From NCBI GenBank assembly GCA_015179125.1, contig WHVA01000230.1, positions 104,598-168,597 of the forward strand: a DNA stretch of 64,000 bases. Reading direction: 5' to 3'. Position 1 is the stretch's first letter. Each line of letters begins with the position of its first letter. The stretch is from Gautieria morchelliformis. Lineage: Eukaryota > Basidiomycota > Agaricomycetes > Gomphales > Gomphaceae. Both the position numbers and the translations under genes were made by a program. The notes beneath the pieces were generated by a model. The model searched no databases. It saw nothing but the letters and a program-made list of their open reading frames with translations, and was not told where the DNA came from. This document shows positions 20,817 through 51,066 of this stretch, in pieces.

Positions 20817-21712
20817 TCAACCTATGACGATCACCTCATTTCCCTCCTCATCTATAAAGCTTGGCAATTCACCGTCAGGGCAGAAGACGACTCCAATGTC
20901 TTCCTCCTCTTTTACTCCCGGCCTCCCATATTCACGCGGATCAACACTCTTTCCCTTCAACAAATCGGCCTGCTCAACCGCAACTTCACCGATGACTGGA
21001 AAGTGAACAACACCACAAATACAGCTCTGTAAGATGGTTTCCATTGCTTGGGTCCACGAGACGCCATCCCGTTGTTGCACCATAGCGACAGTGATGAGCG
21101 GCGCGAGAACATGTCTAAAAAAGACATTCCTATCCATCGGCTCAATGCAAGCCTTCACAACTGGATCATTCTCATCAGGATAGAGCTCATTTAGCTTCTT
21201 GATAATGAATTCCAAGCCCTGTTCGCCAAAACTTATAAAGGAAATAATGAATGTCAGTAAGCATGTCACGTTACCAAGCCTGTGAACTTACTATCCCGCA
21301 CTTCGAAGATATCCCTGTCCACTTAAGTATACATTAAATGGGATATGTGGAGTATTGACAATAGCTGGATCATTGGCAGCAAATGCCTCTTGAACCTCCA
21401 TGTAACCCTCAAGAGATTTTGCATGTGCTATTGCTTGACGGCAGTGGTCTCGGAGCGATACTATGGTATGTTCAAACCAGTTGATATCCAATGTAGTTGG
21501 CCAATGTTCCTTATGGCCTTGAGTCATTTCGGGATGCGTCTCCACTGTGTGAAGCCGGCAGACCATTTTGATGTACGTGTCGTAGTATTCCTCACTAATC
21601 TGAATCTCACCGCTTTCATATGACAGACTTAAATTGACTAGTTCTTGAAGCCGTGAGGAGCATTTGACAGGTAGGCGTGCATCGCAATATATACAGTCCA
21701 GGTGTGGTTCAG
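20817..21712 (-). pseudogene. split gene, C-terminal RTC4-like domain exons
   Basis: Exon 21712-21292 encodes CIYCDARLP, a Cys/His segment (CRLHTVETHPE), the WPTTLDI motif and ends GYLRSAG. A 60-nt intron (21291-21232) follows, then exon 21231-20817 begins with FGEQGLEFI and contains HVLAPLITVAMVQQRDG and ends at TGA 20819-20817. This matches the RTC4-like domain, named from a yeast protein genetically linked to telomere capping. In mushrooms the domain is expanded and its role is unknown. These two exons are intact; the copia insertion lies in the intron just upstream. Confidence 0.65.
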
Positions 21713-21750
21713 CTGTACGTTTGTTGTAGTTTATTAGAATATAAAAGACC

Positions 21751-21755
21751 TCAGA
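21751..21755. repeat. copia target-site duplication, left copy
   Basis: TCAGA directly abuts the left LTR and is repeated at 27013-27017. Confidence 0.9.
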
Positions 21756-22252
21756 TGTTGAGGACAGGAATTATAGGCAGTAGGAATGGACTTCTTGCTC
21801 AAAAGAATAGACTAGAAATTAATTCACTCTCTCAGTGAATTTAGTTGTCACTATAAATATATTATACACTACCTAGAAATTAATTCACTACAGAGGATTT
21901 CTAGGTCAATAAATCGAAAGAATGCTAGACTAATTTACTTGCCTCTCTCAGTGAATTTAGTTGTCACTGAGAGAGGGGGAAATTGTTTCACTGCGCATGT
22001 ACTACTATCCGGCCCTTTAGCGCCCAAGAGCTCGCGCGTCGAAGTCATTTCAGACTCCGCTGGGTGCAGCCGCTTGTGAAAGTAGGAATAACAAAATGAA
22101 ATAGAGAAACAGGGAGTGAGTGGAAAATTTCGAAAATCACCAGAGAAATGGATGCATGATACAAGAACAACATGAGAAGAAATTGAGAAAGCACACAACA
22201 AATTGGATATATTATGCTTGATTTTGGTGCAGGAGCATCAATGCACCCAACA
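21756..22252 (-). repeat. copia 3' LTR
   Basis: 497 bp, identical by eye to 26516-27012. It contains internal short repeats (CTCTCAGTGAATTTAGTTGT appears twice). On the minus strand this is the 3' LTR. Confidence 0.95.
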
Positions 22253-22262
22253 CGCCCCCTCA
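22253..22262 (-). other. copia polypurine tract
   Basis: Minus strand reads GAGGGGGCG immediately before the 3' LTR, the expected place for the plus-strand DNA primer. Confidence 0.6.
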
Positions 22263-22265
22263 AGC

Positions 22266-25200
22266 TTAATATATTCCGATTTGCTCGTTGAGGATCTTCA
22301 CTCTAGGACTAGAAAGTCCTTTGGTGAGGATATCTGCCAACATTTGTTCGGTTGGCAAATAAACGAGCTTGGCTTGTTGATTTTTGATTATATCTCGAAG
22401 GAAATATAATCTGATGTCGAAATGTTTGGTTCTCGTGTGTTGTTGAGTGCCATATGTGATGGCAATGGCTGATTGATTGTCTGAATAAATTTTGATGGGT
22501 CTGTTCAGTGGTTGGAATATTTCAGAAATAAAATGGCGCATCCAGAGAGCTTCTTTGCCCGCATGGGTCAGGGCGACGAATTCGGCTTCAGTTGATGAGA
22601 GGGCTACTATCGACTGTTTCTGGCAACTCCATGAAACAGTGCCTCCATCAATCTGAAATAAGTATGCCGAATACGAACGCCTATGACTCTGTGAACCCCA
22701 ATCTGCATCTGAGTACCCCATCAAGCCGTCTCGATTTCTTCCAAGTGTGAGCTTGTAATGCTTCGTGCCTTTCAAATATTTGAAGACACGTTTGACTGCA
22801 TTCCAATGTGTGCCACCTGGATTTTCGAGGAATTGCGAAAGCAATGACACCGCAAATGCAATGTCAGGTCGAGTGGCTACAGCTGCCCACATCAGTGATC
22901 CTATAGCTTGCCTGTACGGAAATTTCGACATGGCTTTCTTGCCTCTCTCTGTAGAAGGACATTGGTCTTTAGATAATTTTACGGCTGGATCAAGAGGCGT
23001 AGCGTAAGTCTTTGCATCTTCGAGATTAAATTTTTTGATGATCTTCTCGATGTATGCAGGTTGTGAAATTGCAATAGTTTTCTTCTGCCAGTCTCTTTCG
23101 ATTTTGAGATTCAATAGCCAATGAATCTCGCCTAGATCTTTCATACTGAAGACCTGAGCAAGATCTCGTTTGACTTCGTCCAGGACTGACTGATTCTCAG
23201 CTGTGATGGTGAGATCATCCACAGCTGTTGCAATGATCACATGCCCCTTTCCGCCACGTCTATAAAATACAGCCCCATCTGTGGCTGACGTAGTGAATCC
23301 TAATTTGTGGAATTCACCACTTAGACGTTTATACCATTCCCTTCCAGATTGTTTGAGGCCATAGAGTGCTTTCTTCAGAAGTAGCACTTCGTCTTTGTCT
23401 CCAGACTCATATCCATACGGCTGCTTCATGTAAATAGGTTCAGGCAGTGTAGCATTGAGGTATGCATAGTCCACGTCCATTTGATGGATAGGCCAGTCAT
23501 TCCTAGCAGCAATGGCGCATATGATCCGTAGGGAGGATAACCGAGCAACAGGTGAGTATGTCTCATCATAGTCGACTCCAAACTTCTATGTGAAGCCTTG
23601 GGCGACCATTCTTGATTTAGGCATTATTGGTTTCCCTTCTGGATTACGCTTCCAAAGGTAGACCCATTTATTACCGACAATATTGGCTCCAGGAGGTGGT
23701 TTGGCTCGTTCCCACACTCCCTTGTCGATTAGGGCCTCATACTCTTTGTCCATTGATTTCTTCCATATAGGATTATTCAGAGCTTCGTCTGCATTGCTAG
23801 GTTCAATTTGACTCAAATCCGGCGCCTTGTTATTGTTTTGACCGTCGGTTAGAAACGCACTGATGGCACACTCATAGCTACTGATGCCATCAATCTCGGA
23901 GGATAATTCTTGGTCGAATAAAACTTCTTTATGGTCCTCAACGTCCTCGTAAGCTAGCGTAGTCATATGTGCGCCAGCTTGTCTCTGGGTTTGAGATCTT
24001 GTTACGGGACCTGATGGGGCCGGCTGCACTTGTTGTTGACGGATCCTTTCGCTTCTCCTTATCGGTTCAGCTTCTCTAGGTCTGTCATCAACTCCCTGAA
24101 TAGGTTGCAGCTTTTCAAGATATTCCTCTGGTGCATTTTCATCAATTTCTTCGATCTTTGCCTCTTCGCTGACTAAGCGACCGGGTACAGGCACTGATGC
24201 CGGAATGGCCTTCTTCTCCTCTCTAGACGTAGGTAGCTTAGATTCCTCAATAGAAATGATTGGGATCTTTCCCTTCTTCATCTCTGAATCAAACACAACG
24301 TTCCGTTCGACAGAAACTTTGTGCGAGTCAGGCCAATAAATATAATGACCATGGCTCTGCGCAGAAATTCCTATCCACCGAGCTCTCTTGGCACGAGCTT
24401 CCAATTTATCTCCCTGAGTGACCTTAACATAGACTTCAGTTCCCCACGCGTGAATGTCTTTGAGATTCGGTTTCTCATGGTGGATCATCTCGTAGGGCGT
24501 TTTATCCGGTAGAGCTCTTGTGTGCGTCCTGTTCCTAAGATAATTGGCATGCTGTATTGCATAGCCCCATAATATCTTAGGAAGGCCTGATTCTAACAGC
24601 ATGGCAGGAGTTCTCTCAGTGAGAGTTCGGTTCAGACGTTTGGCAACACCATTAGACTCTGGTGTGTCGTGTACCGTCAACTGATGCTTCGTGCCTTGTT
24701 TGGCTAGATGCTGTTCGAATTCAGAGTTCGTATACTCGCCCCCTCGATCAGAAACAAGTGCCTTGATGTGTACATTTCTCTGTCGAAGCATTAAAGCCTC
24801 ATAGAGCTTGTACTTTGAGAATGCTTCTGATTTGTTCGCCATGAGATAGATCACCGATTCTCTTGAGTAATCATCGATAAAGGAGACATAATATGACTTC
24901 TTATCGATCGTGAGGTGTCTTGCAGGTCCCCAGACATCAGAATAAATTCTGTCACTGAATTTTGATGTTCGGTCTCTGGGTTCTCGAGGAAGAGGTTTGC
25001 GTGCAATCTTGGCCTGAATACACGCATCGCAGACAATTCTATCGCCTATGGAGCTCAGTTCAATGCCCAATATCATGCCATGATTTAATAGATGTTGTAG
25101 GGACTTCTGTGAGATGTGCCCCATTTTTTGATGAATTTCCATAGCAGACAAACACATATGGGCTTGAGCACTTGGTGACTGGAGGTCTAGTCGATATAAA

Positions 25201-26510
25201 CCATTGACCTTCGGTGCTTGCATCAATACCTTTCCAGTAGCGTTAGATATTGTGCATTTCTGGCCACCGAGTCGAATGTCGTAGCCAGCATCATCGCACC
25301 GACCGATCGAGACGAGGGTAGCAGCAATTTTTGGAGCATAATATGTATCTTGCAACGTGACTTCTACTGTTTTATCTCCAACCTTATTGGATAATACAAG
25401 CAGTCCTGAACCGAAGGCATCAAAAGTGCCTTTGTTGGCTGCTCGGATAGTCCTCGGCTGTGAGAATTGACAGTAGTTCCTCAATAAATTTTTGTGAGGA
25501 GTCATATGCGATGTCGTTCCGGTGTCGAGTATAACTATAACTCCTGAGGATGTGCTCAGATTGAAATTAGAGCACTCGTCAAAATTGGTGAAGGCAAGAT
25601 GCCCATCACCACTTTCCTCAGAAGAGGACTCTTCTTCGGCAACATTCGCTTTTGCTTTACCCTTCTTCTTCTTCTTGGCTTTGGCTTTTTTCTTCTGACG
25701 TGGTCCTTGACCTTCTTTACCACCTCCTTTAGCCCAGCAATTTTCGATAGAATGTCCAGGCTTTTTGCAGTTGGTGCATATATGCGCCTTCTGCCCCTTC
25801 TGGTCCTTCTTAGTAGATGAACCAATAAACACCTGCTCTTCTTGCGGGAGTGTTTTCTTCCTGTCATACTGAGCCTTTAGTACCCTAATAATATTATCAG
25901 GGACCAATGGCATCCCGCATTCTTCAAGCGAAGTGGTAAGGGCATTCATGACTGCCTCATAGGATGGTGGAAGTGACGCAAGGATGATGTCCATAAATTC
26001 TTCTTCGGAAACTCTGGCTCCCATCTCATTAAGACGAGCATATAGGTCTTGGGCCTTGTCCAAATGATCTCTCAAGTCTCCATCCTCAGGACATCTCATA
26101 CTGCGGAGTTGTCTCTGCAGGCTGGTGAGGACCATCTTGGGCTTTTTGGTCATCTCATTGACCAGTGCATCCCAAGTCTCTTTTGCTGTCTTCTGCTTCT
26201 GTAGCATCAGGGCTAATGACTCTGACACTGAGACGATGATTTGGGTCTTGGCTTGTCCTTCTCTAGCAAGGTATCTCTCCAGCTTCTCCTCAGCCTTATC
26301 CATCTGAGTTTCCTCAGCTTCTGTAAGAATATGGCCTGGGGGCATAACTGGAGGATCAGGAGGTCGAGTGACTCTCCCTTCTACATGCTTGAGTAGATTT
26401 TTGGACTCGAAATAGCTGATGAGAGTGGCTCGCCACAATGGCCAATTACTTCCATCAGTAGCAAGCTTCTCAACACCCAATAGCTTCTCAGAAGTGTCTC
26501 CGGGGCCCAT
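22266..26510 (-). pseudogene. copia gag-pol polyprotein with one amber codon
   Basis: A 1,414-codon frame interrupted once, by TAG at 23588-23586, within GFT*KFGVDY at the start of the reverse transcriptase, where copia elements normally have Gln. Gag is followed by a CCHC knuckle (CTNCKKPGHSIENC), a protease site ILDTGTTSHM, and an integrase zinc region HQKMGH...CDAC. The integrase has its two Asp (YSDVWGP, VSDRGGEY), but the position 36 residues after the second Asp reads Lys (NGVAKRLNR) instead of the catalytic Glu. The RT has AVDDLT. RNase H has YSDADW, STEAEF and YSDNQSA. Start ATG 26510-26508 lies inside the primer-binding site. Confidence 0.95.
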
Positions 26511-26515
26511 AACCC
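26502..26515 (-). other. copia primer-binding site
   Basis: Minus strand reads GGGTTATGGGCCCC directly after the 5' LTR. This is complementary, with one wobble position, to the anticodon-loop half of initiator tRNA-Met, the internal-tRNA priming known for Drosophila copia. The gag ATG is embedded in it. Confidence 0.65.
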
Positions 26516-27012
26516 TGTTGAGGACAGGAATTATAGGCAGTAGGAATGGACTTCTTGCTCAAAAGAATAGACTAGAAATTAATTCACTCTCTCAGTGAAT
26601 TTAGTTGTCACTATAAATATATTATACACTACCTAGAAATTAATTCACTACAGAGGATTTCTAGGTCAATAAATCGAAAGAATGCTAGACTAATTTACTT
26701 GCCTCTCTCAGTGAATTTAGTTGTCACTGAGAGAGGGGGAAATTGTTTCACTGCGCATGTACTACTATCCGGCCCTTTAGCGCCCAAGAGCTCGCGCGTC
26801 GAAGTCATTTCAGACTCCGCTGGGTGCAGCCGCTTGTGAAAGTAGGAATAACAAAATGAAATAGAGAAACAGGGAGTGAGTGGAAAATTTCGAAAATCAC
26901 CAGAGAAATGGATGCATGATACAAGAACAACATGAGAAGAAATTGAGAAAGCACACAACAAATTGGATATATTATGCTTGATTTTGGTGCAGGAGCATCA
27001 ATGCACCCAACA
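26516..27012 (-). repeat. copia 5' LTR
   Basis: 497 bp, TGTTG...CAACA, the same as 21756-22252. It would carry the promoter of the element; transcription runs leftwards. Confidence 0.95.
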
Positions 27013-27017: not shown

Positions 27018-27022
27018 CTCAC

Positions 27023-28055
27023 TGGCAGCATCATCCGGTGCAGAATTAGGACATTTGTCTAGCCTTGTATTGCACTGTTCTTCTCCAAGCTCAAGGTCAG
27101 ATGCGCTGCAGTGATCATTCGAAGGACAGTCAATTCACGGGTAGTTTACCACTGATCTTACGCACTTGTTGTTCCTTAGCTCCTTCCCATCCCGACCTCA
27201 CAATCTCTTCCCAGTAACTTGTGCTTCAAAGAACATCCAATGCACTGCGTCACTGTCACCCTTGTCTAAAAAATCGATGTACAACTCTTTGTAAGACTTC
27301 TTCACGGTTTCAAGTATCTGTTGTTTGTTCCTAAGTGTCTCCTGCACACACTTGGTCCCAAAAACCCCCAGGAATGCATCATTCTGTAGAAAAAACCTGA
27401 CTTATGAAGTGTTTCCAGTTCCTCAAGGCCGTCCACAATCACTTTGATGGCCAGCGGCGTTTTGAACTCAGCACTATAGCGTTCTCTTTGGATGAAGCTG
27501 GCACGCTGCTAATATTGGATGTTGAAGAGCCCATGCTAGCATTAGATGTCGAAGAGGCCATGCTAGTGTTAGATGTCTGAGCTGTAGTGACTGGTGAGGG
27601 AGAAGGAGGATATGAAGAGAAGCGTTGGAGATCCTGAGCATGCGTAGTTAAAGCTTGGCTGGCACAAGACAATGGGGAGCAAGATGAGTCTTCCCATGCC
27701 ATTTGAGACTTAGCTGATTGAGTATGCATCTGCGATCCATCGACCTTCTGAACTTTTTTCAACGGAGATGCAACAACTTCACCCTTGCGTTTCCCAACTC
27801 TCAGTGCCTTACCTCCAGGCTGACATATAAGCTCTTCTTCCAAATCCAGACAATCCGCCTTGTTAACATCAAAATGTCGATACAGAAGGCGTTGCTCAGG
27901 AATGACTTGCCAACTGGTGTCCAGTTGATGTAGACACCATTCTCCTTTCAAGTAGACCCAGACAAGCAAAGCTTCATTAAGGCCCATGATCGCTTTCAGA
28001 TCGAATGTAGCCGTTTTGATAGATGCAATGCACATGTAGGATGTGCATAATCGAA
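27023..28055 (-). pseudogene. split gene, middle exons
   Basis: From the Helitron border the frame reads IRLCTSYM...ATFDLKAIMGL, LLVWVYLKGEWCLHQLD, EQRLLYRHF and CLDLEEEL, then a Ser/Thr-rich linker to about 27439. Coding continues in other frames (LEELETLHK, NDAFLGVFGTKCVQ, then WEEIVRSGWEGAKEQQ) with at least one apparent frame break near 27200, and ends at 27023 with the donor GTGAGT of the copia-filled intron. The open frame and conserved-looking composition support a real gene. The breaks suggest decay or introns I could not place. Confidence 0.6.
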
Positions 28056-28392
28056 TTCCTATAGGTGAAAGTAGCACGGTGGGAGGTTGTGGGCGCGCTT
28101 ACAAATAATATTACGTAAAACTTATGTCATTCCTATAGGTGAAAGCGGCTCGGTGGGTTGTGGGCGTCGAGCTTATGTCAGCTTTTAGGTCATCAGTTTG
28201 TCAGCAGAGCGCGCGAGCGGTGCAGCCGCGAGCCAAGAACGCTGCGCAGCATGGTCACGTGACCGTTTGCGTTCCAAATGAGGTCAGCGGCGAGCGGCGC
28301 AGCCGCAAGAGAACGCTGCGCAGTGGTCACGTGACCCGTTCGCGACCAGAGCGCACATATGCGAGTGTGGTCCGTGCACGACACGCGCGCAC

Positions 28393-28402
28393 GGTATAAA
28401 GG
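28393..28402 (+). promoter_or_regulatory. TATA box of H1
   Basis: GGTATAAAGG followed about 30 bp downstream by a sequence (GGAACGCTAGGAACCTGCCC) that is conserved in H2 after its own TATA box. Confidence 0.5.
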
Positions 28403-28439
28403 CCGAACGGTAAGGAGGGAACGCTAGGAACCTGCCCAA

Positions 28440-28570
28440 CCGGCGATTCCTCTGTCTGCTGTCTGCCATGTGCTCTGTCTGCTCTGTCTGCTCTGTCTGC
28501 TCTGTGCTCTGTGCTGTCTGCTCTGTGCTCTGTCCGCTGTCTGCTCTGTGCCCTGTCTGCTGTCTCCTCC
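28440..28570 (+). repeat. CTCTGTCTG microsatellite in H1
   Basis: Imperfect repeats of CTGTCTGCTCTG length 5-9; the equivalent stretch in H2 is about 31700-31810. It is followed by a candidate splice donor (ATTGGTAGGT). Confidence 0.7.
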
Positions 28571-28799
28571 TTTAGCTGGCTGCCTGTCTATTGCTTGGCT
28601 GACTTTCTATTGGTAGGTAATATCTTTTGTTTAATGCATTGCCATGTATTTTATTTTATTTGTGTTTGTAATTTTATTAGTTCTTTTTTTTTTCATCATA
28701 GTATTGTCACATGTGCATTATATTTTGGTGATTTCTTTCGAAAATAGATTTAAATACCATCCAAAGACTGCTAAAGAAAATGTATTTTAATATCAATAT

Positions 28800-29370
28800 T
28801 TTTCAGGTTTTTTTTCGAAAATAGACATCAATAAGTTCCCTCTAAAATTAATGAGATTCTGCTTTTAAATGGTTTGTTTTATTGTTTTAATTACTGTAAA
28901 GCCACTTACCAGCCACCCCTCTCTGGCTATACTGGTGGCTGGCTTACTATGGCTTTGGCTGGGCTCTGGGTTTCTCTGTCAGTCTCTGGGCTTCTCTGGC
29001 TTTGGCTGGGTATTAATAACAGCCTCTGCTTCAATGTACTGTACTTTTTTGACATTTTTTCGCAGATAGATGTCAATAAATTATCCTGACTTTGTGAAAA
29101 TTGTCAGCTTAAATGTACAGCGCATTTTTTTGACATTTTTCAAAAATAGATAATCTTGACTCTGCTAAAATTAATAACAACTTCAGCTTAAATGTACTGG
29201 ACATTCATTTTGACATTTTTTGAAAAATAGATAATCCTGACTTTGCTAAAATTAATGACAGCAGCTGCTTAAATATGGCTTCCTTTACTATTGTATTTAT
29301 GTCTGTATATGTCACAAAATAGATATTGATACATGTCCCTGAGTTTGCGAAAAGTTAATGATAAGTAACA
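28800..29370 (+). repeat. about 85-bp AT-rich tandem repeats in H1
   Basis: Repeated blocks contain TTTTTTGACATTTTT, GAAAAATAGATAATCCTGAC and TTTGCTAAAATTAATGAC. The same family recurs at 32030-32600 and 32900-33310 in H2. Confidence 0.7.
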
Positions 29371-29399
29371 GCCCCTGCTCGCTTCACTTTGAAGCCCTT

Positions 29400-30145
29400 G
29401 GGGATGTGCTACACATGCCATTGGGACATGCTATGCATGCTATACTTGAGGGGCATGCTACACACACTAACATGCATGCTATGCATGGGGACACACACGC
29501 TATGCTTGGGGACACCCATGTTATGCGTGGAGACACGCATGTTATGCATGGGGACAAGCATGGTGTGCATGGGGATGTGCACACTATATGTGGGGACACA
29601 CTATGCTTGGGGGACATGGTACAAACAAGGGACACACTACAGGGGAATACACTACAAACACGGGACATTCTACACAAGCTATACTTGGGGGACACGCTAC
29701 AAACAAAGGACATGCTATGCACACTATACTTGGGGGACATGTTATGCATTGGGGACACACTTTGCACACTATACTTGAGGGAGACGCTACACACACTACA
29801 TGCAGGGACATGCTACACATGTGGACACGCTATGCATGGGGGACACACATGCTATAATTTAGGGACACACTATGTCTGGGCACATGCTACAAACCAGGGA
29901 CATGCTACACACAAAATACTTGAGGGACATGTTATGCATGTGGGACATGCCATGCACACTGTACTGCATGTGGGGACACACTACATATGGAGACATGCTC
30001 CATGTGGAGACACACTACGCACACTATGCTTTGGGACACACTACGTGTGGGGACATGCCACATGTGAGGATGCAATACGTGTGAGGACAGATAAAGTGTG
30101 ATGACACACTACAGGCAAGGACACACTACATGTGAGGTAGGGGAC
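29400..30145 (+). repeat. GGGACACACTA minisatellite in H1
   Basis: Dozens of variants of GGGGACACGCTATGCATG-like units of about 15-30 bp. All six frames appear falsely open because the units lack stops. H2 has related arrays at 32710-32890 and 33310-33620. Confidence 0.75.
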
Positions 30146-30639
30146 ATGAGACATGGGAGAAATGTGTAGAGTCATTACCTGTTATGTATCAGGTTTGGAT
30201 CTAAAAGGACTGCAGCTCCAACTTATATGTTGCACCCCCAACTATCATCCTAAGTATTCTGGAGATCTGAGATTGGAAGTTGGAAGAGGTTGAGTATTGT
30301 AACTGAAGTAGTAAGGGTTCAAGAATTGAGTTAAGTTGGATATGAGAAATCAAGTTGGAAGACGGAGGTCAGAGAGACAGAGGCCTTGCAGGTCTAATAA
30401 CCGGAGACAGTGCAAAGGGAGTGACATATCAAAGTCGATTATCTGATTGCTGAACAGAGGCACACATGACTGGGTTTTATACAAAGAGCTGAGACAACAT
30501 GTCAGAAGGTAGAGGTAAGCAATTCCAGTGCAAGTAACTAGAATAAAAGTACCTAATGCGAAACAAGAGGAACTACAAGGGGGTGCAGTGTAGAACTAAG
30601 AACAATAGGCAAAAGACCAAGGGTCTAATTGGTAGTGGA

Positions 30640-31390
30640 ACAAATGGAACTCCTGACGCTCTGGACTTGCTGTGCTGAGGGTCAAGTATGGAATGCTGGT
30701 GAAAAGAGTCATTAGGGGAAATATGTGAAGAACAAGGGGATCACAAGGTTGAAGTGCAGACATTGTGGAATAGAGTCAGAGGTGCGGGGGTACCGGAGTT
30801 GGTTGAGCATGGTCATAACATTACCTACCTTGATGTGTTATTTAGAGTTACTTTCAATCAATAAGAAGGGTTTTACTTATCTGAATGAAAATTTCTTATC
30901 CGAATGTGTTTGACTTATCCCAAGTTTGATTCACCCAATGCGTTTGACCTTACCGATGCATTTGACTTGCACCCCCATGCAAAGTGTGGGTACCCACCTA
31001 GGGAATTGATAGCGGAACAAATGGAACTCCTGATGCTCCGGAATTGCTATGTTAAGGGTTAAGTAAGGAAGGCTGGTGAATAGAGTCATAAGGGGAAGTA
31101 TGTGAATAGGAAAGAACAAGGAGATCAAAAGGTCGAAGTGTGGACATTGCGGAATAGAGTCAGAGGAGGTGCAGAGGTACCAGAGTTGGTCAAGCAGCAT
31201 GGTCATAACATTACCTACCTCAATGTGTTACTTAGAGCTACTTTTAATCAATAAGATGCATTTTACTTATCTGAATGTGTTTGAATTATCCCAAGTTTGA
31301 TTTACCCAAGGTGTTTGACTTTGCTGATGTGTTTGACCTTACCGAGGCGTTTGACTTGCACCCCCGCGCGAAGCGCGGGTATCCACCTAG
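30640..31390 (+). repeat. tandem duplication of the Helitron 3' tail
   Basis: Two diverged copies of about 370-390 bp (roughly 30635-31001 and 31002-31390). Each runs from GGAACAAATGGAACTCCTGA through CATGGTCATAACATTACCTA to a terminal hairpin and CTAG. Confidence 0.8.
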
Positions 31391-40534: not shown

Positions 40535-40728
40535 TGATGAATGGCTTGCCAGGCTAATTGTGTGTCGATAAACAACTTCTTAGTCATAAAGTTTCGTAAA
40601 GCAGTACAACTTATTACCTTCGAATACCAGATTAAATTATGAGACTGCTGAACCAACATGATATTATTTTGAAGTTCTTGTGTATGAAGACGACGGTCTT
40701 GTGCAATCAAAGTTGCAAGGTCACGTTG
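40535..40728 (-). pseudogene. split gene, fragment between Helitron and DNA transposon
   Basis: Exon 40728-40618 reads QRDLATLIAQDRRLHTQELQ... and ends SHNLIWYSK. A 64-nt intron (40617-40554, GTAATAAG...AATTAG) follows. Exon 40553-40535 reads PGKPFI and runs into the Helitron border, beyond which the frame resumes at 28055 with IRLCTSYM. The fragment is in frame with the exon beyond the DNA transposon (50343 onwards). Length and phase agree at both joins. Confidence 0.75.
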
Positions 40729-40736
40729 CTGGGTAC
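40729..40736. repeat. 8-bp target-site duplication, left copy
   Basis: CTGGGTAC, repeated at 50343-50350 outside the opposite terminal inverted repeat. Confidence 0.9.
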
Positions 40737-41139
40737 CACCTGTACGGCACCAAACTGTAATCTAGTTAGACGCACACCCCACATGTGTGGTCTAAGTCTA
40801 ACTAGCAAATTCCTCGTGGTAGGTCTATTCCGTAGTTTATTCCGCGAAACTGTGTCCAGGTAGTTCCCTTGACCTGTATAGCCCTGTGGTCCCCTGCTGT
40901 GTGTGTCTGTACGGCACTGTCCGCCGTCAAACTCCGCCACCACACGGCCTCTGGCTCAAACCACATATGCTCGTTGTCGCTGACGGCGAGCACAACATTG
41001 TCTTTATAAATAATTACCCAGACATAAAAAATATATCACAAATATGCTAAAAATCAGGAGATGACAAATATAGCTAGTTCGTCGTTCCGTCCTAAGCATC
41101 GATCCCGTGCTCGCCGTCTGCAACGGCGAGCAGGCCGTC
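40737..41139 (+). repeat. left terminal inverted repeat (403 bp)
   Basis: Inverted copy of 49940-50342 with a handful of substitutions and no length difference. It contains a hairpin CTAGTTAGAC...GTCTAACTAG at about 40762-40805 and two 25-bp palindromes at 40968-40992 and 41108-41132. A third, diverged palindrome lies just inside, at 41241-41265. Confidence 0.93.
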
Positions 41140-41265
41140 TACTTCATAAATAAATAGCCAGATAATAAAAAAATACCATAATTTTCTTAGGAATTCAGGG
41201 ACCTTGAATATAGAATTAGGTGGCATAAGCTCCAATCCTGTGCTCGTCATTGCAGACGGGGAGCA

Positions 41266-43361
41266 GGCCGTCTACCTCAAAACTAAATAGTCAGATAATA
41301 ATAAAATACCATAATTTTCCTAAAAATTCAGACCTTAAATATCAAATTACGTGGAGTCGAAAGCACAATCGTTCCGAGGAATGATGCATTGATGTGTGCG
41401 GCACCCAAAACCAGCAGAAAATCAATAAAAATTCAATTTCAAATATGAAATTACAGGGACTTGTCCCAAATAGGATTCCAAATGACGAAGGCAGTAAGAA
41501 CCTGCCTCGCTGTCTCTTATTGTTAGTCCTCGCTGATAGAAGCCTGAGAAGCCTCAGGCTGTTTATTACCAGTAGTTTCTTTCTTTTTCGGAGCAGCCTC
41601 AAAGCTACGAGCTATGGTAGGTATTGTGGGCTTGTAGTCATGCAACATATACCAGCTAGTAACGCTACATCTTCTTTATAATGTGCATCGTTCACGAATT
41701 AATAGGGATGCCAAAGCACTCACGGCATGTTGGCCAAAGGTATGTTCACATCTTCAATGCTTGATGTTTCTGACGGTTTAAGTTGTCTGCTTTTGCGCAT
41801 GGGGTCGCTGAACACTATGACCTATGACTCCTCTCGCTGTATCAGCCCTGAAATTTTATTCCGATGTCCCATCATCCATGGCAGCACGTAGTTTCCTTTG
41901 CAGGGCAGATTTCTACCCATGGTCCACTCACAGAGGGTGCAACCTGTCAGAGAGGTTGACATTGGAGGCGGAGGGCATAGAAGTAAAGCAGATGCAGGTC
42001 CCCTGTGGCGAGTATGGGTGGTTTCCTGAGAGTATCGATTTGAAAGTGGAAGAATAATATGTTGTCTGGCAAATGCGTGTACTTCTGAGTGACAGCACGC
42101 AAGCCGACTCGCCTGACTGCGTTTTCTGCATGTAATGGAAAATGGTGCTTCTGATATATGCGCCTCCACTTATGGTAAGTCTGGAGGCGTCAAGTCATGA
42201 AGCAACTAAGTTGTAAAATCGATCCGCACAGCGTAGGATGAAACACCCTGCCAATACATCAGGCTAGGTTGAACCACCAGAAAATCAGCCACCTCACTGC
42301 TGTGAATTTAAATCAGTTTGACTGTTCGAGTCGATATCATAAGTCCGGTCCCTTGCTAGCTTGGACGTACTATTGTAACCTTAGCACTGTGCCTGTAACT
42401 AATTGCCATGCATCAATTTATTGGCATGTATTCTTCACTGGTTTTGAACCATATCTAGGTCCTATATGTCATCTGTACTAAGTGGTATCTGCGTATCTGC
42501 AGTGTTTCGTACCCCGTCTGGTGTTTACTGTAAAAGTTCGTTTTCCAACTGCAATAGCGCTCCCATTCACGACGCCACAGCGATGACGACGTTGGACGAA
42601 GAGGCAGACTCAAGCAGAACCACAAGGACTGACTTGGTGCTTGGCCTCTTCTTTCCACACGTTGCAGCGCCGTTCCACTGCTTGGCTTCAAGTATATTTC
42701 TTGCCCTTGCTTTTGAAGCTGCCTCTCTGCTTCTTCCACAGTTCTTTGCCTCTTGTTAGAATTACTGTTCGCCTTGGACTCCGAGTTGGAGTCAGCAAGT
42801 CTGATTCAGAAGCTGCTGCAATCGCGCCGCCTCAACGCGGGAAACAGGCCCCTCGCGCCGCTGACTACATACCTTCAGCGGCGTGAGGGATCCCCAGGTG
42901 GTGGGTCGGCGTTGCATTTGCCAGCACAGTCAGTGTGATCGCTGCTGGAGGCGGAAAAAATGTAGCACGGGGGAGATATTCCCCACCCTGGCCGGCATCC
43001 ATCAGGAAAAACCGCATTTGCCCGAGAGCCCGGACCTATATTTATCGGCTCGGCCGCGGTGTATATTTCGACCGCCCGCTCTCACGTGTGCTCCTATCTA
43101 TAGGTTCGTCGGGCATGCCTTCATAGCGCGGGAGTGACCCCATACCCCCAGCCCTGCTCACTATAGTCTCCATTGCGCGCCCATGAGGCTATGGTGGCCT
43201 GGCAGCGACGATAGCTGGTGCTCCCCGGGGCGCCTGGGCCCCCATGGAAGCTCGCTCTTCTGTCCGACACAGATGCTACAAGTCAACCAACATGTACTAC
43301 TAGTTGACCAGTAGTACAATTCAACTGAACTTTGCCAAACTTAACTTGAATAGTCATTGAA
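41266..43361. other. left cargo of the DNA transposon, no recognised gene
   Basis: Short ORFs on both strands without known motifs. A minus-strand stretch near 42760-42620 (EEAERQLQKQGQEIYLKPS) looks coding but is isolated. The part next to the transposase, 43050-43300, is CG-rich with CTATGG and ATAGCGCG motifs like those on the far side near 49190-49330. Confidence 0.4.
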
Positions 43362-46300
43362 CTAATCATTAAAAAACTGGTAAGTATACAAATCTGTGAA
43401 CTCGCTAACATAAAACTGCTTGGAACGCTCCAATGAATTCTCTGTAGTCATGGTACGATCAATCTTTTCGCCAAATCGAGGTATTAAATGGCAGCTGCGG
43501 CGAATCGATTGGACGCTCACGACGGCCGCATGGCCTTTGCCTTGGGTGGGTGACACGGTGTACATGTCTACACCAGTGGATGGTTGTCGAAACTCGGTAT
43601 ACCATTCAACGTACACGAGTGGGTGCGGGTATTCGATGTGAGAGGGCAGCCGGAAGATCATCCGTACTCGCCCGACGCGATAACCTAAGTGGGTGAGCGA
43701 TTCCGTACACACAGAGTTATGCATCGGGACTCACCTAATGCACCAGTCTCTTGCGCATTCGTGCCATAATGGATCAGCACTGTATCGAAGTGTTCTGGGA
43801 CTTCAGGGGTCCTGCCGCGGCGTGGCACTCGGGGCGTAGCTCGGACGACATCTTTGATCACGGTATCATCAATTTGTTGGATTGAACGGAGCATAAAGCT
43901 AATGCGTTTATACACGGGGAGCCGTGTATAAACACTGAGATCCAAGGTACACCTGGGAAGGTTAAACCTGAGGAAAGCAGTCAGCGCAGGGATAAACTCG
44001 GGTGCGCCGAATTCATTGATAATCCTCGACACGCTGGTGTTCGGGAAGCCGGGACGTTTAGCAATGTGGTATGTTCGGCCCACTGTGTCCTCTGGTCCAC
44101 TTGCTGATGCTGGCGGTGCGGCAGTTGACGCTGGGATGAAACGCACCAAACGGCCAAGATTTTCCTCGCAATCTTCGTCATCCACATCAGGTTCATCTGG
44201 GGAGTGAGATGATAGGAAGCTGCCGAAGGAATGGATTTTTTCTTGTCTAGTAAGCCATCTGGTCATCTGGATTATGAAGTCCTTACGACTGCTGGCGCGG
44301 TAACCAACTTTAGAGAAGTCGATGTGCAGTCTCTCTGGCAATTCGGTGTTGAAGCCATCGGCGGTCCCCCGAGACATGATAGACTCAACATAGTGTTCTA
44401 TCATGTGTAGCTTGGGAATTTGAAAATGTTCTCGAATCTTGCTGTGTACGAAAGCTTCTTTGTAACGGTGGAAGCGGTCGAGGGCATCTTGGAGGCAGTT
44501 CAAGGTGGTAGTCGTGTGTGAGGGATATTGTGACAGGTAAACAAAATCCAGGACAGCCCGTGCCGCCTTGAGAGCTTGAGGTGGGAGCGCACCGGCCATC
44601 AAGCCCACGAACACTTTCTCCATATTCTTGTACTCCGTGCCTGACCACTGGCTGATGCTTGAGATTCCCTTCTTGAAGTGACGGACACTGGGGTGACTCG
44701 GGACAGCCTGGAAACGTGCATCAGTTTCAGGGTGAGTGGCTACCTTCATGCACCAGGAGCACAAATGGTCCTTGAATACTCCTTTGTGCAATTGGTGTAG
44801 GATGTCAGGGGTCAAGCAGCGGAAAATATCACAGTGAGGGAGAATTTCCCAGAATGGCTGCCTGACCTCACGGATGCCCACGTCGTCACGGGGACCAGCC
44901 TTATCAGCACTGTTGGTGACGATGTGTTGCATGTGATCTTCCGGACATCGAAAAAGGGTGCCAGGGTCGTCTGCGAAAATGGTGGCAAGTGGGTCCCCAC
45001 GATCCTCAGGGTAGCACTTGCAGATGGGACACCAGTTTTCTTTGACACAAGCAACAAGGGCCTGCTCCGGAAAATCGGCAACATAAGCAGCAAGAATCGG
45101 GAATACCTTTCGGATGCCACCATCTGCGCAAAGAATGTCTACTCCACTCGCACCGGCAACGACCATCCGTGAGAGGATGGTGCGCATACAGTAGTGGAAA
45201 AGTTGCCACCCCTGGGCCTTGCGTGTGCCAGCGGAGAAACACTTCAGCTTGGATATCGGGAGATATCCAAGGAGGATGTTTGCACGTGCGGACACTTTGC
45301 GACGCGTGGCCTTTGGGATGTTCCCAATCGTCAGATACACAGGCCACGCCACCTTGTCCCCACTGAACTGGGAGAGCCGCGTCTTGTCTGAGGCCAGGAT
45401 GACAGGGCATATTGTGGCCCCGGCAGGGAGTTTGGACTGTGATTCCAGCAAGGGTGAGCTCTCAGGACCTTTATCATGATCATTGGACTTGCCTGGAGAT
45501 CCCACCACCAATTGGCCATCCACATCTCGTTGTATATGCGTTCGGTCCTTTTTTTATCCTCGAAGACACGTTCTGGCACATAATGGAGCGAGTCGCGGAA
45601 GGCGGGGTTGCCCATGAGTTCACAGACGCATTCGACTGGATCCCTGTAGAACAATTCAAGTTCTTCTGTCATATATTCCCCATTCGCATCCTTGACATCG
45701 CCATGCACCGTGATTGTTTCACAAAGAAACTCTGGTCCGCCGGTGAGCAGTGCGTCGACCTTGTTGAGAAGTGTGCGCTTGTCGGTGAAAGAAGTCTGCG
45801 TGCGTGTTGTCATCTAGACAGAGGTGAGTTCGTTGTTGGGCTGCGAGCCTATGGGAACTCAACTCACTATTGGCAGTTTGAGAAGTTTGTCCATGTGGTT
45901 AAAACTCATACCACTGGTCATGAGTGTCTGCGCAAGCTCCCATTCATCCTGATCCACAAATGGCTCGTAAAGCGACTGCTCAGGGTCGTACCGCATTTCG
46001 TGAAGGAGGTCGAAACGAGTGGTCCCGTGTCCATGGACCTCACCTGCCGGTCCAGGAAATGCCTCCACATTCCTGGGGGTTCGTGGAGCAGGTCGCGTCA
46101 CATCTGGTCGGTTTGGAGAGATGGAGGAAGCAAGGTCAGCTTCGATCATGGGGTGTGAGGTGGAATCTTCATCCATGTCCATCATGGGATGATCCAGCTT
46201 GTCCAACATGACGTCCATGGCCTCACTCTGCCACCCAGCAGATGGCTCATCGTCGCGTGGATGTGCTTCCGGATCAGATGGGTCGTACATGCGCACTGGG

Positions 46301-46419
46301 CGCCGGGCTAGTGCCGCCTGATGGGCGTTCTTGCATGGTGTGCGATGGGCAAGGTGCAGGCGAACACCTTGCCGGGTAGGGAGAACCTTGAAGCAGTATG
46401 GGCAGCATATTAGAGGCAT
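43362..46419 (-). CDS. Plavaka-family transposase
   Basis: It would excise and insert the element as a nuclear DDE-type transposase. Exons: 46419-45868 (C2H2-like CCPYC...H...H, then WELAQTLMTSGMS), 45813-45493 (FYRDPVECVCELMGNP, YNEMWMANWWWDLQ), 45436-43735 and 43684-43362. The third exon carries the family core: [80 protein letters not shown], and FNTELPERLHIDFSK. The last exon ends YQFFND*. Introns are 54, 56 and 50 nt; the second uses a GC donor. No stop or frameshift was seen, so this may be functional. An in-frame ATG at 46518 is an alternative start. Confidence 0.9.
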
Positions 46420-46518
46420 GCGAGCGTGTTGTTGCACATGCGCAAGACAGCGTTTCCTTGCCCACAGGGCTTGTTTGGTCATGCAGCCCGAGGGACTCGG
46501 GCACGTGACCCATATCAA

Positions 46519-46616
46519 CGTTGTTGATGTTTACCAACACCACCATATCTTAAGAAGGAATTGCATAGGGTTCTTGATATGCGATTCCTTCTTTCCCCAC
46601 GCTCATCAACCCAACC
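46519..46616. promoter_or_regulatory. shared divergent promoter region
   Basis: About 100-200 bp separate the start of the transposase (minus) from the start of the companion gene (plus), so regulation is probably shared. No clear TATA box is visible. Confidence 0.35.
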
Positions 46617-48944
46617 ATGCCTCGCCAATCAATCCACACACAACCACGTAATGTAAGCCATTATTCACCTCTTCTACGTCCCCTCATGTCTCATTTATGT
46701 CAACGTCCCTCATGTCTCATTTATGTCAACGTCCCTCATGTCTCATTTATGTCAACGTCCCTCATGTCTCATTTATGTCATGCACCTCGTGCACCAGTTC
46801 GCACAGCCGCTCAACAGGGACACGAGCATCCAGTCCAACATGGGAGTTTCTCTGTCCCACCCGCTAGCTCGGCCCATCACTGGCGACCTTCAAGGGCCTC
46901 CCGAGTCAAGAGGCAAACGCGCCGACCGCCATATCTCCCAGAAAGGGCAAGACATGCGTAAGTAACGACCCCTGTCACGTGTTCCTTTACCGTCCGCTCA
47001 CACATCCGTCAGGGGAGCAATTAGAAGCATCCAGGCTCCGCCGAGAGAAGCTTGCCAATGCTCGGCAGCGCAAGGAGCACCAGCAAGACGTCACGAAGGA
47101 GCCCCGAGCCTCCCAATCATCACGACCTTCCAAGAGGAAGGTCATGATAGAGGACTCAGACCCTGACACAGATTCAGAGTCCCATGCACGCAAAAGGCGA
47201 CCCCTTCCGTGTGTCCATGACGATGACGAGGAACGCGCCATGAATGTCGATATTGATGACAATGGCATCGATCAACCTCATGCGTTCAATGATGAGCTCA
47301 GTGTCCAGGCCGGCAACGCCTCGGAAACCTCTGATATTCATTCTGAGGGTGCACCTGAGTCCTCAACGGAATCGGAGGAGGACGAGCTTGAACTCGTCCC
47401 TCCTACTGGTAATTCTCCTATCCTCATGTTATGTACTGCCTAATTCCTGCACTCCCAGTATCTACCAAAGCCCCATCAGGACGACACCATGTTCAGTTCT
47501 CTTCGGTCACCGTGACCCTGCCAACAAAAGCGAAGGTACCTACGGGGAACCCCACCCCCAAGCGCACGATGGCCCCGGTGCCACCACTTCGCTCGATCAT
47601 GAACACGCGATCGCCAGGCCTGCATGATCACCAATCGCTGGAACTGAGCTCCTCAACTGGTATGCCCAGTTCCCCCTCTGTTCACGCAGCCCACCGTCAG
47701 CCCATTTACTCATTGTTCACGTTCATCTCACACTGCTCAGGGCTATCCACAGGGACCCGTGGGGTCACGATGGGCGAAAGGCCCGCAAGTGTTAGGCATG
47801 CACCAGGTTCACACATGGTGCACACACAACAGCACACACCACCGTCCGAGCCAGAAGCCCCCCCTAACCGGTTGCCTCCGGTCGTCCGCCGAACCAGCAC
47901 CCCCATTCCAGGACGCCGTTCTAAGGTGAAACTCACGGATTTCGATGCTGAGTACCATGCAACGATCAACCTCGCATGCCGGTTCTACCGGGTCATTCTG
48001 TGCACAGAGGACCCTTTCCCACTTGATCATGACCAAGACGGGTACCTTCGCGAGGCCTGGTCCCTCGCGTGCAAGGAGCACCAGGTAGAACTTGGAGTAG
48101 ACAGTGCAGCGTTTAACCTTGTGAGTACACATTTGACCACGCTATCACTCCCGGTTACCCTTGTGCCCGTAGATCAGGCAACGTGGCAGTCAGGTCCGCG
48201 GTGAGGTCAAGCGCAACGCACGACCTGTCGCCACCTTGCACTACGGCTTCAGCTCTAGCCCGGATAGTGCACACCGGAGCCAGATGGCCACCCTAGCCCA
48301 GACACTCACCAACAAGCATACCCTGGTATACCGGGTATGTTTATATGTTAGTCCAGTATCCTCACTAACCTATTATCAGGATCATGAGGCCCGCAAAGGC
48401 CTTTTTGAGACCCCCTGCCTCATCCACATTCTGCAAACCCAATGGTTTGCCGACCCTCATGATGAAGGTGTGGCTTTCCATCTCTACTTCAACCCCATTC
48501 CTCTGCCAACCATGGCCCTCGTGTTCATGGCCGTGAGTCCATTCCTATACCTGAATACGAACGGCCATGCTGACTCAGTGTACAGATTGAAAACTGCATC
48601 GACGAGTGGAAGGACGGCCAGTTGAAGCCCGTGGACTTCACTGAAAAATCACACCGCGAAAAGTACCTGGCCCATCTCACGAACCTCAAGGGATGGAGGG
48701 GACACGTGCAAGGCAAGCATCTGCTGGCGCACATGCAGCAACGCTTACATGACGAGGCACGGTGAGTATTCTCTCCAGATAACATATTGACCCTGTTATT
48801 CAAGTTGTTTCTAGCACCCATTCGGGGGCTGGCGTGCTTCAGGAGGAGGGACAGCTATCTGGGCTTACGAATGATGATTTCGACGAGGCCGCGCGGGAGG
48901 CAGCAGGGGATTCAGAAGAGGAGCGCGAGGCGGCCCATGCGTAA
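46617..48944 (+). CDS. DUF6532-type companion gene of the transposon
   Basis: About seven exons. ATG 46617 opens MPRQSIHTQP, with an intron at 46648. Next come a basic and acidic disordered part (EQLEASRLRREKLANARQR, then DSDPDTDSES and an EEDELE cluster) and a Pro/Ser linker. The folded C-terminal half includes LACRFYRVILCTEDPFPLD, REAWSLAC, ETPCLIHILQTQWFAD, YFNPIPLPTMALVFMA, IENCIDEWKDGQ and LKGWRGHVQGKHLLAHMQ, the pattern of DUF6532, a fungal domain of unknown function often found next to such transposases. It ends EEEREAAHA* at 48944. Exon borders in the first half are approximate. Confidence 0.65.
46683..46786 (+). repeat. 26-bp minisatellite (four copies)
   Basis: Units of CTCATGTCTCATTTATGTCA plus AACGTCC begin at 46683, 46709, 46735 and 46761 (the last is incomplete). 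They lie in the first intron of the companion gene. Confidence 0.9.
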
Positions 48945-49939
48945 GTGGCGCATATTGCCCCAGGGGTTAGACTCAGGCGGCAGTCCCCAAAGAGAGAAGC
49001 AGATAGTCTTACATGTACGACTGATCCCCTATAGATTACATGCAAATGATATCCAAATCATATTTTGTGCTGTGTCCGCTATGTCAATTCACTGCGAAGC
49101 AGGGTTTCGAAAACAGCGCAGGCTACCTGACACCCCTCTGTGTATATAGTGCCTGTATCGCTATTGTGCGCTATGAATTCCTCCCCCGATAGCTCTCCAG
49201 CACGTGTAGGGCAGAGTACCTAGCGCTATGGGGGCGCTATGGGGGGATAAGCTCGCCCTATGGTGCGCTATGGGGGGATATGAACAGGTACGGGGAGGCT
49301 ATGCCGCGGTTCATATACCGGGGTAGCCATTCGCTCTATGTGCACTATTTTGCCTATGAAATCCTATCTATACATTGCTTTTTTTCCTGATGTCCGCCTG
49401 CGCTGTACGTTCCAAGCAACCATATGATGACGTCTGAATAAGGGATATTCTCATGTCAATTCCCCCTCGGCCGGCTCATTGTTGGCTCCGGATGCGACAG
49501 CTGAGTGTAACAACCACCAAATTTCTATAAGTAACCACTGAGATTGAACCGACTGGTAGCAGCCATGGCAGTTATCAACCCTCGCATTCTGTTCAACAGC
49601 TATCCTGAGGGCTATCCAGGAGAGACCACCATATATGACATACTCAGAAGATTGATCTCAACGTGACATCTCTCAATGGCAGCGAGCTTAACAAAGTTCT
49701 TGCCCGTGCCGCACACATCATTCGACGCCACGTAATTCAATATTCAAGGTACCTGATTTTTCAGGGAATTTTTATTATTATCTGGCAACTTATTTATGAA
49801 GTAGATGGCCTGCTCGCCGTTGCAGATGGCGAGCACGGGATCGGCGCTCTGGTACGGAATGACGAACTAAACCATATTCGTCATCTCCTAATTTTTAGAA
49901 TATTTGTGATATATTTTTATTATCTGGGTATTTAGTTTT
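48945..49939. other. right cargo of the DNA transposon
   Basis: A cluster of GCGCTATGGGGG-type motifs at 49228-49280 and further CTATG motifs to 49340, then AT-rich DNA. The innermost of the three right-hand palindromes is at 49811-49835. No gene. Confidence 0.45.
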
Positions 49940-50342
49940 GACGGCCTGCTCGCCGTTGCAAACGGCGAGCACGGGATCGGCGCTTAGGACGGAACGACGA
50001 ACTAGCTATATTTGTCATCTCCTGATTTTTAGCATATTTGTGATATATTTTTTATGTCTGGGTAATTATTTATAAAGACAATGTTGTGCTCGTCGTCAGC
50101 GACGACGAGCATATGTGGTTTGAGCCAGAGGCCGTGTGGTGGCGGAGTTTGACGGCGGACGGTGCCGTACAGACACACACAGCAGGGGACCACAGGGCTA
50201 TACAGGTCAAGGGAACTACCTGGACACAGTTTCGCGGAATAAACTACGGAATAGACCTACCACGAGGAATTTGCTAGTTAGACTTAGACCACACATGTGG
50301 GGTGTGCGTCTAACTAGATTACAGTTTGGTGCCGTACAGGTG
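49940..50342 (-). repeat. right terminal inverted repeat (403 bp)
   Basis: Mirror copy of 40737-41139. Palindromes at 49947-49971 and 50087-50111 correspond to those on the left; the third is outside it at 49811-49835. Confidence 0.93.
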
Positions 50343-50350
50343 CTGGGTAC
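50343..50350. repeat. 8-bp target-site duplication, right copy
   Basis: CTGGGTAC, matching 40729-40736. Confidence 0.9.
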
Positions 50351-51066
50351 AGCCCGCTGGCAATGGATTGGCGAGTTGACGGCTAGTGTGGGATCCAGCA
50401 GTATTAGAAGATGAAGGAATAGCAATAGATTGCTGAGCAGAAAGATGCGATGATGGTGCGGATGATACAGATGGTGCAGGCAGAATTGACGCAGATGGAA
50501 CAGATGATGCAGAAGCTGAGGCGATGAAGGCATTGGGTAGACGGCGCTTCTTCAAAGGACACAGTTTCCGATGAGGATTTTCTTCTGCTGCCTGATGGCA
50601 GCACTTGACACATAAAATGTGAGGTTGACAGAACTTGTTACCGCGAGCTATGTGACATGTAGTGCAATTGGAACTTGTTAGCGCAGAGGCAGAAGCATTT
50701 TGAACTGACGGCACAGTGGCCTGAGCTCCAGGAGCTTGAGGTTGCACCAACGGGACTCCAGGAGTAGGTGCCATTCAGTGGTGGACATGGATGGCATTGC
50801 ATTTGTTGCACTAGCATGACATGAACAGTGAGTTATTCTCATAATAAAGACACGTACATTCTGATATACTTTCCCCCTAATCTTGGATGTTGGTGATTCC
50901 AATATACTTGGGATCCCTAACTGACCTCCACATCTGAAAGCCTCCCCAGTTTTTTTGCGTGGACAAAGCTGTCTGACATCAACGCGACGACATGGATTTG
51001 TTGGTGAGAGGTTACGGGTGTCCTCTTCGAGGATCGACGGCCTCACAGTAGGGTCAATATTCATCA
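50343..51066 (-). pseudogene. split gene, N-terminal exons
   Basis: The probable start ATG near 51066 gives MNIDPTVRPSILEED, then CPRKKTGEAFRCGG and GKVYQN up to 50858. A 47-nt intron (50857-50811) follows. The next exon opens CNKCNAIHVHH, meets TGA at 50777-50775, and continues in the same frame as MAPTPGVPL... with a Cys cluster (CTTCHIARGNKFC...CVKCCHQ...CPLKK) and a Ser/Gln-rich linker to NPLPAGCTQ at the transposon border. The TGA may be a disabling mutation, or translation may start at the ATG that follows it. Confidence 0.65.

What the first reader, a model, noticed from the sequence alone, without database searches (positions are those of the whole stretch)
20817..51066. One gene torn into a 30-kb array by three different transposons
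Minus-strand fragments at 51066-50343, 40728-40535, 28055-27023 and 21712-20817 join into one gene when three inserts are removed. Taking out the 9.6-kb DNA transposon plus one CTGGGTAC copy joins ...AGCTQ to QRDLATLI in frame. Taking out 28056-40534 joins PGKPFI to IRLCTSYM in frame at an A|T site. Taking out the copia and one TCAGA leaves a normal 48-nt intron (5310 minus 5262). Three independent length and phase checks agree, which is strong internal evidence that all three landed in the same gene.
Basis: partly seen in the sequence, partly recalled or inferred. Interest (0 to 1): 0.9.

Follow-up and report, generated by a model that had tools for sequence, protein, structure and literature searches.

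The report
Transposon gene shredded by later transposons
Four scattered fragments in a fungal genome are one gene split by later mobile elements; the gene itself very likely belongs to an older, poorly described two-gene mobile element, so the pile-up is ordinary but the older element is worth a look.

Summary
Searched apart, all four fragments match in the same order and strand in 13 of 24 related contigs of this genome; the first junction fits to the base in 10 of the 14 contigs matching both sides, the second within 6 bases in 12 of 16. The interpretation needs three corrections. (1) The "9.6-kb DNA transposon" is two elements: a PlavakaB (43000-49392) nested in a defective KDZ-family element (40737-50342, 8-bp duplication). 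(2) The 28056-40534 insert holds four Helitron 3' ends: a head-to-tail array. (3) The torn gene is very likely no ordinary host gene. Its relatives pair with a CxC6 cysteine-cluster gene: 20 of 30 genome-wide RTC4-domain matches lie within 8 kb of a CxC6 match, all 20 convergent, 0.34 expected; none of 50 canonical KDZ loci has either neighbour. But the eight strongest RTC4 matches are unpaired. Two such units have related ends and 7-8-bp duplications. In the window the CxC6 partner is decayed and head-to-tail with the torn gene. So: nested transposons inside an old two-gene DNA transposon. Nesting is ordinary; the CxC6 plus RTC4-like pairing was not found in the papers I could search.

The parts
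50351..51064 (-). Fragment A of the torn gene (5' exons; includes a Cys-rich stretch CTTCHIARGNKFC..C..C)
   Evidence: tblastn to relatives; 96% identical 404-bp copy of part of it on contig C653; no Pfam match at E up to 1
40535..40736 (-). Fragment B of the torn gene
   Evidence: tblastn to relatives between A and C
27018..28055 (-). Fragment C of the torn gene (exons near 28053-27448 and 27386-27023)
   Evidence: tblastn to relatives; its DNA (27100-28000) matches only itself in this genome
20817..21755 (-). Fragment D of the torn gene, with weak RTC4-like domain at its 3' end
   Evidence: Pfam PF14474 E 0.0018, 18.8 bits, below the 23.7-bit cut-off; relatives
40737..50342 (.). Outer DNA element: 403-nt terminal inverted repeats, 8-bp duplication CTGGGTAC (40729-40736 and 50343-50350); KDZ-family derivative
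   Evidence: 11 of the 40 listed matches to its end lie within 9 kb of a canonical KDZ domain, 0.29 expected
43000..49392 (.). PlavakaB element nested inside the outer element: CATCAGG..CCTGATG ends, 2-bp duplication TC, transposase ORF 45553-43685 (-)
   Evidence: PF18759 E 4.4e-87; ends and duplication from a scan of four end patterns; a 99.9% identical stretch on C190 stops at the 43000 end; the 49392 end was not checked against another copy
28056..40534 (+). Helitron array: 3' ends at 31001, 31390, 34092 and 40534; Rep/helicase frames 35932-39120 and 39009-40370; 5' start TTCC at 28056 and again at 28130
   Evidence: Helitron_like_N E 2.1e-59 and PIF1 E 7.7e-67
21756..27012 (-). Copia retrotransposon in an intron: LTRs 21756-22252 and 26516-27012 identical, TSD TCAGA
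   Evidence: 40 LTR matches at 99-100% listed, two of them its own, a lower bound
51925..54162 (-). Decayed CxC6-type gene (candidate transposase of the old element), with a frame change and an in-frame stop near its 3' end
   Evidence: PF18721 E 7.1e-21; tblastn; frames
20105..20165 (+). Sequence like the CxC6-unit end, CAGGAAGCC..CCATGGAC..CCATGGAC..AACCCTATGA, about 650-710 bases beyond the gene's stop
   Evidence: partner end not found
54498..56183 (+). Frame of a second copia element (gag part) beside the start of the CxC6 remnant
   Evidence: PF14223 E 1.1e-31

Best explanation
Fragments A-D are one gene, the second (companion) gene of an old two-gene DNA transposon whose other gene encodes a CxC6 cysteine-cluster protein. 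After this copy became inactive, or as it did, a defective KDZ element entered an exon (later receiving a PlavakaB of its own), Helitrons entered another exon and form a head-to-tail array there, and a copia retrotransposon entered an intron. Shown: the fragments form one gene family; the insert boundaries; the CxC6 pairing of most relatives; decay of the CxC6 partner here. Inferred: that the CxC6 protein is the transposase (conserved WMD..NC, VDVFHY.CKH and AEQTN.W stretches resemble a DDE-type core by eye only), and that the companion, with Cys-rich parts and a weak RTC4-like end, is an accessory DNA- or chromatin-binding protein. The order of the three sites is unknown, except that the PlavakaB postdates its KDZ host and the copia is very young.
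For: Colinear relatives. Insert signatures. 20 of 30 RTC4 matches within 8 kb of a CxC6 match, 20 of 20 convergent, about 0.34 pairs expected; near-identical copies are counted separately. 15 of 24 fragment-C relatives lie within 8 kb of CxC6, all 15 convergent. 0 of 50 merged canonical KDZ loci have RTC4 or CxC6 within 8 kb. Ends: gene-side CAGAAAGGCCCGGCCGTTCGCAACTCGTCCATGGA and CxC6-side GAGAACGACCCGGCCGTTCACAACTCGTCCATGGA, with duplications AGAGTTTG (C1011) and CGAGTTT (C312). The window has CxC6 upstream of the gene and a similar end beyond its stop.
Against: In the window CxC6 and the gene are head-to-tail, not convergent as in the scored relatives, and only one end was found, so membership of this copy in one intact unit is not proven. 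The RTC4 match of the window gene is below Pfam's cut-off; 15 of the 30 genome matches reach it, and only 6 of those 15 are paired with CxC6; the eight strongest RTC4 matches are all unpaired. 66 of 86 CxC6 matches have no RTC4 match within 8 kb. 9 of 24 fragment-C relatives lack CxC6 within 8 kb, among them the best match, C366 (nearest 11,966 bases). Profile comparison of the CxC6 core with KDZ from this genome was not significant (E 0.41), and two core pieces had no Pfam match at E up to 5. Evidence of constraint on the companion gene is weak: dN/dS 0.38-0.47 in five pairs but 0.54-0.99 in four others; among four comparisons of MITE-bearing copies 0.69, 1.40 and two without a ratio; out-of-frame controls 0.60-0.86; up to five in-frame stops in a compared copy.
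Confidence: 0.8

Rival explanations
1. A conserved host gene of an RTC4-like family was hit by transposons; CxC6 elements merely sit near its duplicated copies.
For: 10 of 30 RTC4 matches, including the eight strongest (best C582, E 8.8e-13), have no CxC6 within 8 kb; the window copy is not convergent with its CxC6 neighbour.
Against: Paired copies share unit ends, two with duplications, are dispersed and repeated, and the pairing far exceeds chance. C582 is not among the matches of fragments A, C or D.
Confidence: 0.14
2. The fragments are separate gene pieces brought together by Helitron capture or rearrangement, not one gene.
For: Helitrons can capture gene pieces (recalled), and a 404-bp piece of A lies alone on C653.
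Against: Order, strand and spacing in uninterrupted relatives; target duplications at two of three sites.
Confidence: 0.03
3. Assembly error joined unrelated repeats into this array.
For: 1113 contigs, repeat-rich.
Against: Each insert has exact biological boundaries (duplications, LTR pair, Helitron ends), which mis-joins would not produce.
Confidence: 0.03

Closest known systems
CxC5/CxC6 6.8-kb insert that breaks MSH4 in sporeless Pleurotus ostreatus (PMC7641404; passages and one section read)
   Same: Repeated CxC6-encoding unit of similar size (C312 and C1011 units here about 6.3 and 6.7 kb), no canonical KDZ transposase nearby
   Different: In the parts I read, no RTC4-like partner, inverted ends or target duplication is reported, and a copia role is suspected
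Kyakuja and Zisupton (KDZ) transposons with TET/JBP companion genes (PMC12730594; outline, passages and section 3.2 read)
   Same: DNA transposons with an extra gene; 7-bp (Kyakuja) or 8-bp (Zisupton) duplications; CA..TG ends in Kyakuja
   Different: Here the companion is RTC4-like, and no canonical KDZ domain lies within 8 kb of the CxC6 matches
Cryptococcus KDZ1-KDZ3 (PMC12810828; passages read)
   Same: Long inverted ends (139-241 bp) and 4-8-bp duplications, like the outer element 40737-50342
   Different: No KDZ transposase was seen in the outer element here, which carries a PlavakaB instead
PlavakaB (PMC12730594, section 3.2)
   Same: CATCA..TGATG ends, 2-bp duplication, Plavaka transposase
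   Different: None noted; an ordinary copy, nested
Helitron head-to-tail arrays (recalled from the literature)
   Same: 3' hairpin plus CTAG, next unit starts directly after it, A|T target
   Different: 5' end reads TTCC here rather than TC

Membership tests
RTC4-like domain family (PF14474) | Match above the curated Pfam cut-off | tested here: not met
   Window fragment 18.8 bits against 23.7; its relative on C113 reaches 27.6 bits
CxC6 unit (old host element) | CxC6 domain gene next to the torn gene | tested here: met
   PF18721 E 7.1e-21 at 52309-53040
CxC6 unit (old host element) | Convergent orientation of the two genes | tested here: not met
   Both on the minus strand in the window; 20 of 20 RTC4-CxC6 pairs elsewhere convergent
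CxC6 unit (old host element) | Related inverted ends with 7-8-bp duplication | tested here: inconclusive
   One similar end at 20105, the other not found; relatives C1011 and C312 meet it
KDZ transposase superfamily (for the CxC6 gene) | KDZ catalytic domain PF18758 | tested here: not met
   No Pfam match in two core pieces at E up to 5; 0 of 86 CxC6 hits have KDZ within 8 kb
KDZ derivative (outer element 40737-50342) | Terminal repeats shared with KDZ-bearing elements and 8-bp duplication | tested here: met
   8-bp TTCCCGAG at the C138 copy, but no matching duplication at the C251 pair
PlavakaB | Plavaka domain, CATCA..TGATG ends, 2-3-bp duplication | tested here: met
Helitron | Rep and helicase domains, 3' hairpin and CTRR, A|T site without duplication | tested here: met
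Helitron | 5' end TC (recalled) | tested here: not met
   Start reads TTCC after the A of the target, here and in other copies
Ty1/copia | LTR pair, gag-integrase-RVT_2 order, 5-bp duplication | tested here: met

The most novel reading that the evidence does not exclude
CxC6-encoding units with an RTC4-like companion gene form a separate group of fungal DNA transposons with their own transposase (the CxC6 protein), which would explain the unclassified CxC6 insert that makes Pleurotus ostreatus sporeless.
Probability: 0.45. Interest if true: 0.6.

Novelty: new variant of a known kind. Interest (0 to 1): 0.42.

Why it matters
Nested transposons are common, so the torn gene is ordinary in itself. 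The host unit is the useful part: it suggests that CxC6 cysteine-cluster genes, so far described as "associated with KDZ" or left unclassified, mark a two-gene DNA transposon with an RTC4-like partner. That gives a concrete hypothesis for the element that broke MSH4 in a commercial mushroom, and warns that some RTC4-like genes annotated in mushrooms may be transposon genes.

Tried and rejected
Separate-gene, Helitron-capture and mis-assembly readings were rejected on colinearity and exact boundaries. The idea that the 9.6-kb element is one Plavaka making 8-bp duplications was rejected: a near-identical Plavaka stretch on C190 ends at 42998-43000, inside it. Homology of the CxC6 core to KDZ by profile comparison: not significant. 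A matching second end for the window unit: blastn of 51065-61000 against 10001-20816 gave only short matches. A pattern search for the CxC6-side ends printed nothing; they were then found by comparing near-identical units. dN/dS on relatives: suggestive only. An allelic empty site in the same assembly: not found; the fragment-C DNA matched only itself and the transaldolase end of the window proved to be repeated. Structure prediction was not run: single-exon pieces without an alignment would model poorly, and the tool's list of admitted loci does not name genome search. Literature: RTC4 with KDZ, 0 papers; RTC4-like domain, 0 papers; RTC4, transpos, Agaricomycetes (two of three), none of the 20 listed of 185 holds RTC4; CxC6 searches gave the Pleurotus work and one later paper that concerns the same commercial strain, seen in the listing only; the 2014 KDZ paper was not held, so its content was not seen.

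Full report
The window lies in an unnamed 122-Mb genome of 1113 contigs.

Is it one gene? I searched the fragments apart. Besides itself, fragment C has 24 matches in the genome at E 0.01 or better, D (exon 21755-21294) has 20 and A (50774-50349) has 4. Loci were held for 24 contigs. Stitching them and running tblastn with all stop-free pieces gave A, B, C and D in the same order on one strand in 13 of 24 contigs. For A-B, expected and observed spacing are equal in 10 of 14 contigs that match both; C418 and C113 (21 nt shorter), C827 (68 longer) and C405 (83 longer) differ. For B-C the difference is 0-6 nt in 12 of 16 contigs and 11 nt in four. Many of these contigs are 94-99% copies of each other, so the counts overstate independence. 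At C-D, 48 nt with intron-type borders remain (by eye), and three relatives inspected by eye have an intron-like stretch there.

What are the inserts? Copia: 497-nt identical LTRs and TCAGA duplications; gag, integrase and reverse transcriptase domains; 40 LTR matches of 99-100% listed, two of them its own, a lower bound. With no difference in 497 sites it is very young. Helitron block 28056-40534: Rep and helicase domains, 3' hairpin and CTAG at 40534, and further 3' ends at 31001, 31390 and 34092. Among 13 5' starts printed from the 11 best other loci, 8 follow the CTAG end of another Helitron directly, one lies two bases after such an end, and four do not. So the block is an array, whether built by repeated insertion or in one event. 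Outer DNA element 40737-50342: 403-nt inverted repeats and an 8-bp duplication; a copy on C138 has 8-bp TTCCCGAG, while the C251 pair of ends shows no matching duplication. Inside it, 43000-49392 has CATCAGG ends and a TC duplication; a stretch on C190, 99.9% identical over 708 nt, stops at the 43000 end. Canonical KDZ domains lie within 9 kb of 11 of the 40 listed matches to the outer end, 0.29 expected. Hence a PlavakaB nested in a KDZ derivative, in line with published PlavakaB features (PMC12730594, section 3.2 read) and with 8-bp KDZ duplications (PMC12810828, passages).

What is the torn gene? The window's D fragment matches RTC4 weakly (E 0.0018, below cut-off). Genome-wide, 30 RTC4 matches (E up to 0.1) and 86 CxC6 matches (E up to 0.01) were listed. 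Of the 30, 20 lie within 8 kb of a CxC6 match and all 20 are convergent; 0.34 pairs are expected. Of the 24 fragment-C relatives, 15 lie within 8 kb of CxC6, all convergent. None of 50 merged KDZ loci has RTC4 or CxC6 within 8 kb. Against this: the eight strongest RTC4 matches are unpaired, 6 of the 15 above the Pfam cut-off are paired, and 66 of 86 CxC6 matches have no RTC4 match within 8 kb. Some unpaired ones may be true host RTC4 genes or units whose companion is too diverged or lost; I did not test which. The C1011 and C312 units end in similar inverted sequences and are flanked by AGAGTTTG and CGAGTTT. For the others inspected (C378, which shares C1011's flanks, and C271, C418, C113, C156, C827, C819) no separate duplication was established, because an end was missing, altered or not held. 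In the window a CxC6 gene runs from 54162 to 51925 on the minus strand and is decayed; a sequence like the unit end lies at 20105. The two genes are head-to-tail here, unlike the relatives, and the far end is missing, perhaps lost at the second copia near 54498. I therefore read the torn gene as the companion gene of an old, rearranged CxC6 unit.

How it may work. By eye the CxC6 proteins share WMD..NC, VDVFHY.CKH and AEQTN.W stretches, which I take as a DDE-type core; profile comparison with four KDZ sequences of this genome was not significant and Pfam gave nothing in two core pieces, so this is inference. The companion's role is unknown; Cys-rich parts and the RTC4-like end suggest a DNA- or chromatin-binding helper. 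Nine relatives carry an insert of about 400 nt, self-complementary in the blastn comparison, in this gene (read only in C1011), yet several of those copies are repeated, so the companion may be dispensable in cis; five of the nine share flanks outside the unit, which for those five points to larger duplications instead. In C319 a related Helitron sits about 90-100 nt from the window's Helitron site in the same exon. dN/dS values are 0.38-0.47 in five pairs and 0.54-0.99 in four, with 0.69, 1.40 and two undefined within the insert-bearing group and out-of-frame controls of 0.60-0.86: suggestive at most.

Literature. Pleurotus ostreatus carries 44 to nearly 60 CxC5/CxC6 regions, one in a 6,792-bp insert that breaks MSH4, with no KDZ transposase nearby (PMC7641404, passages and one section read). 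I found no paper with both RTC4 and KDZ or with the phrase RTC4-like domain. The library omits most subscription papers and the 2014 KDZ paper was not held, so novelty is provisional.

The CxC6 plus RTC4-like unit behind it is the part of interest.

Noticed in passing
window 62100-63900: A transaldolase-like region (PF00923) at the right end is repeated: besides itself, five near full-length copies at 95-99% and several partial ones in the genome.
   Followed up: no
C1011, C169, C208, C378, C994, C155, C478, C476, C1079: A palindromic insert of about 400 nt interrupts the D exon of nine relatives; in C1011, the only copy read, it is 403 nt with TTA on both sides.
   Followed up: partly
L029 (C319): A related Helitron interrupts the same exon about 90-100 nt from the window's Helitron site.
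   Followed up: no
L043 (C653:18147): An isolated 404-bp piece, 96% identical to window 50599-51002; no other fragment of the gene matches the held stretch.
   Followed up: no
L058-L066: Helitron 5' ends directly follow the 3' ends of other Helitrons in 8 of 13 starts inspected.
   Followed up: partly
window 4100-7980: Frames of a non-LTR retrotransposon (endonuclease, RVT_1, RNase H) on the minus strand.
   Followed up: no
window 56492-58715: A tandem array with a period near 337 bases.
   Followed up: no
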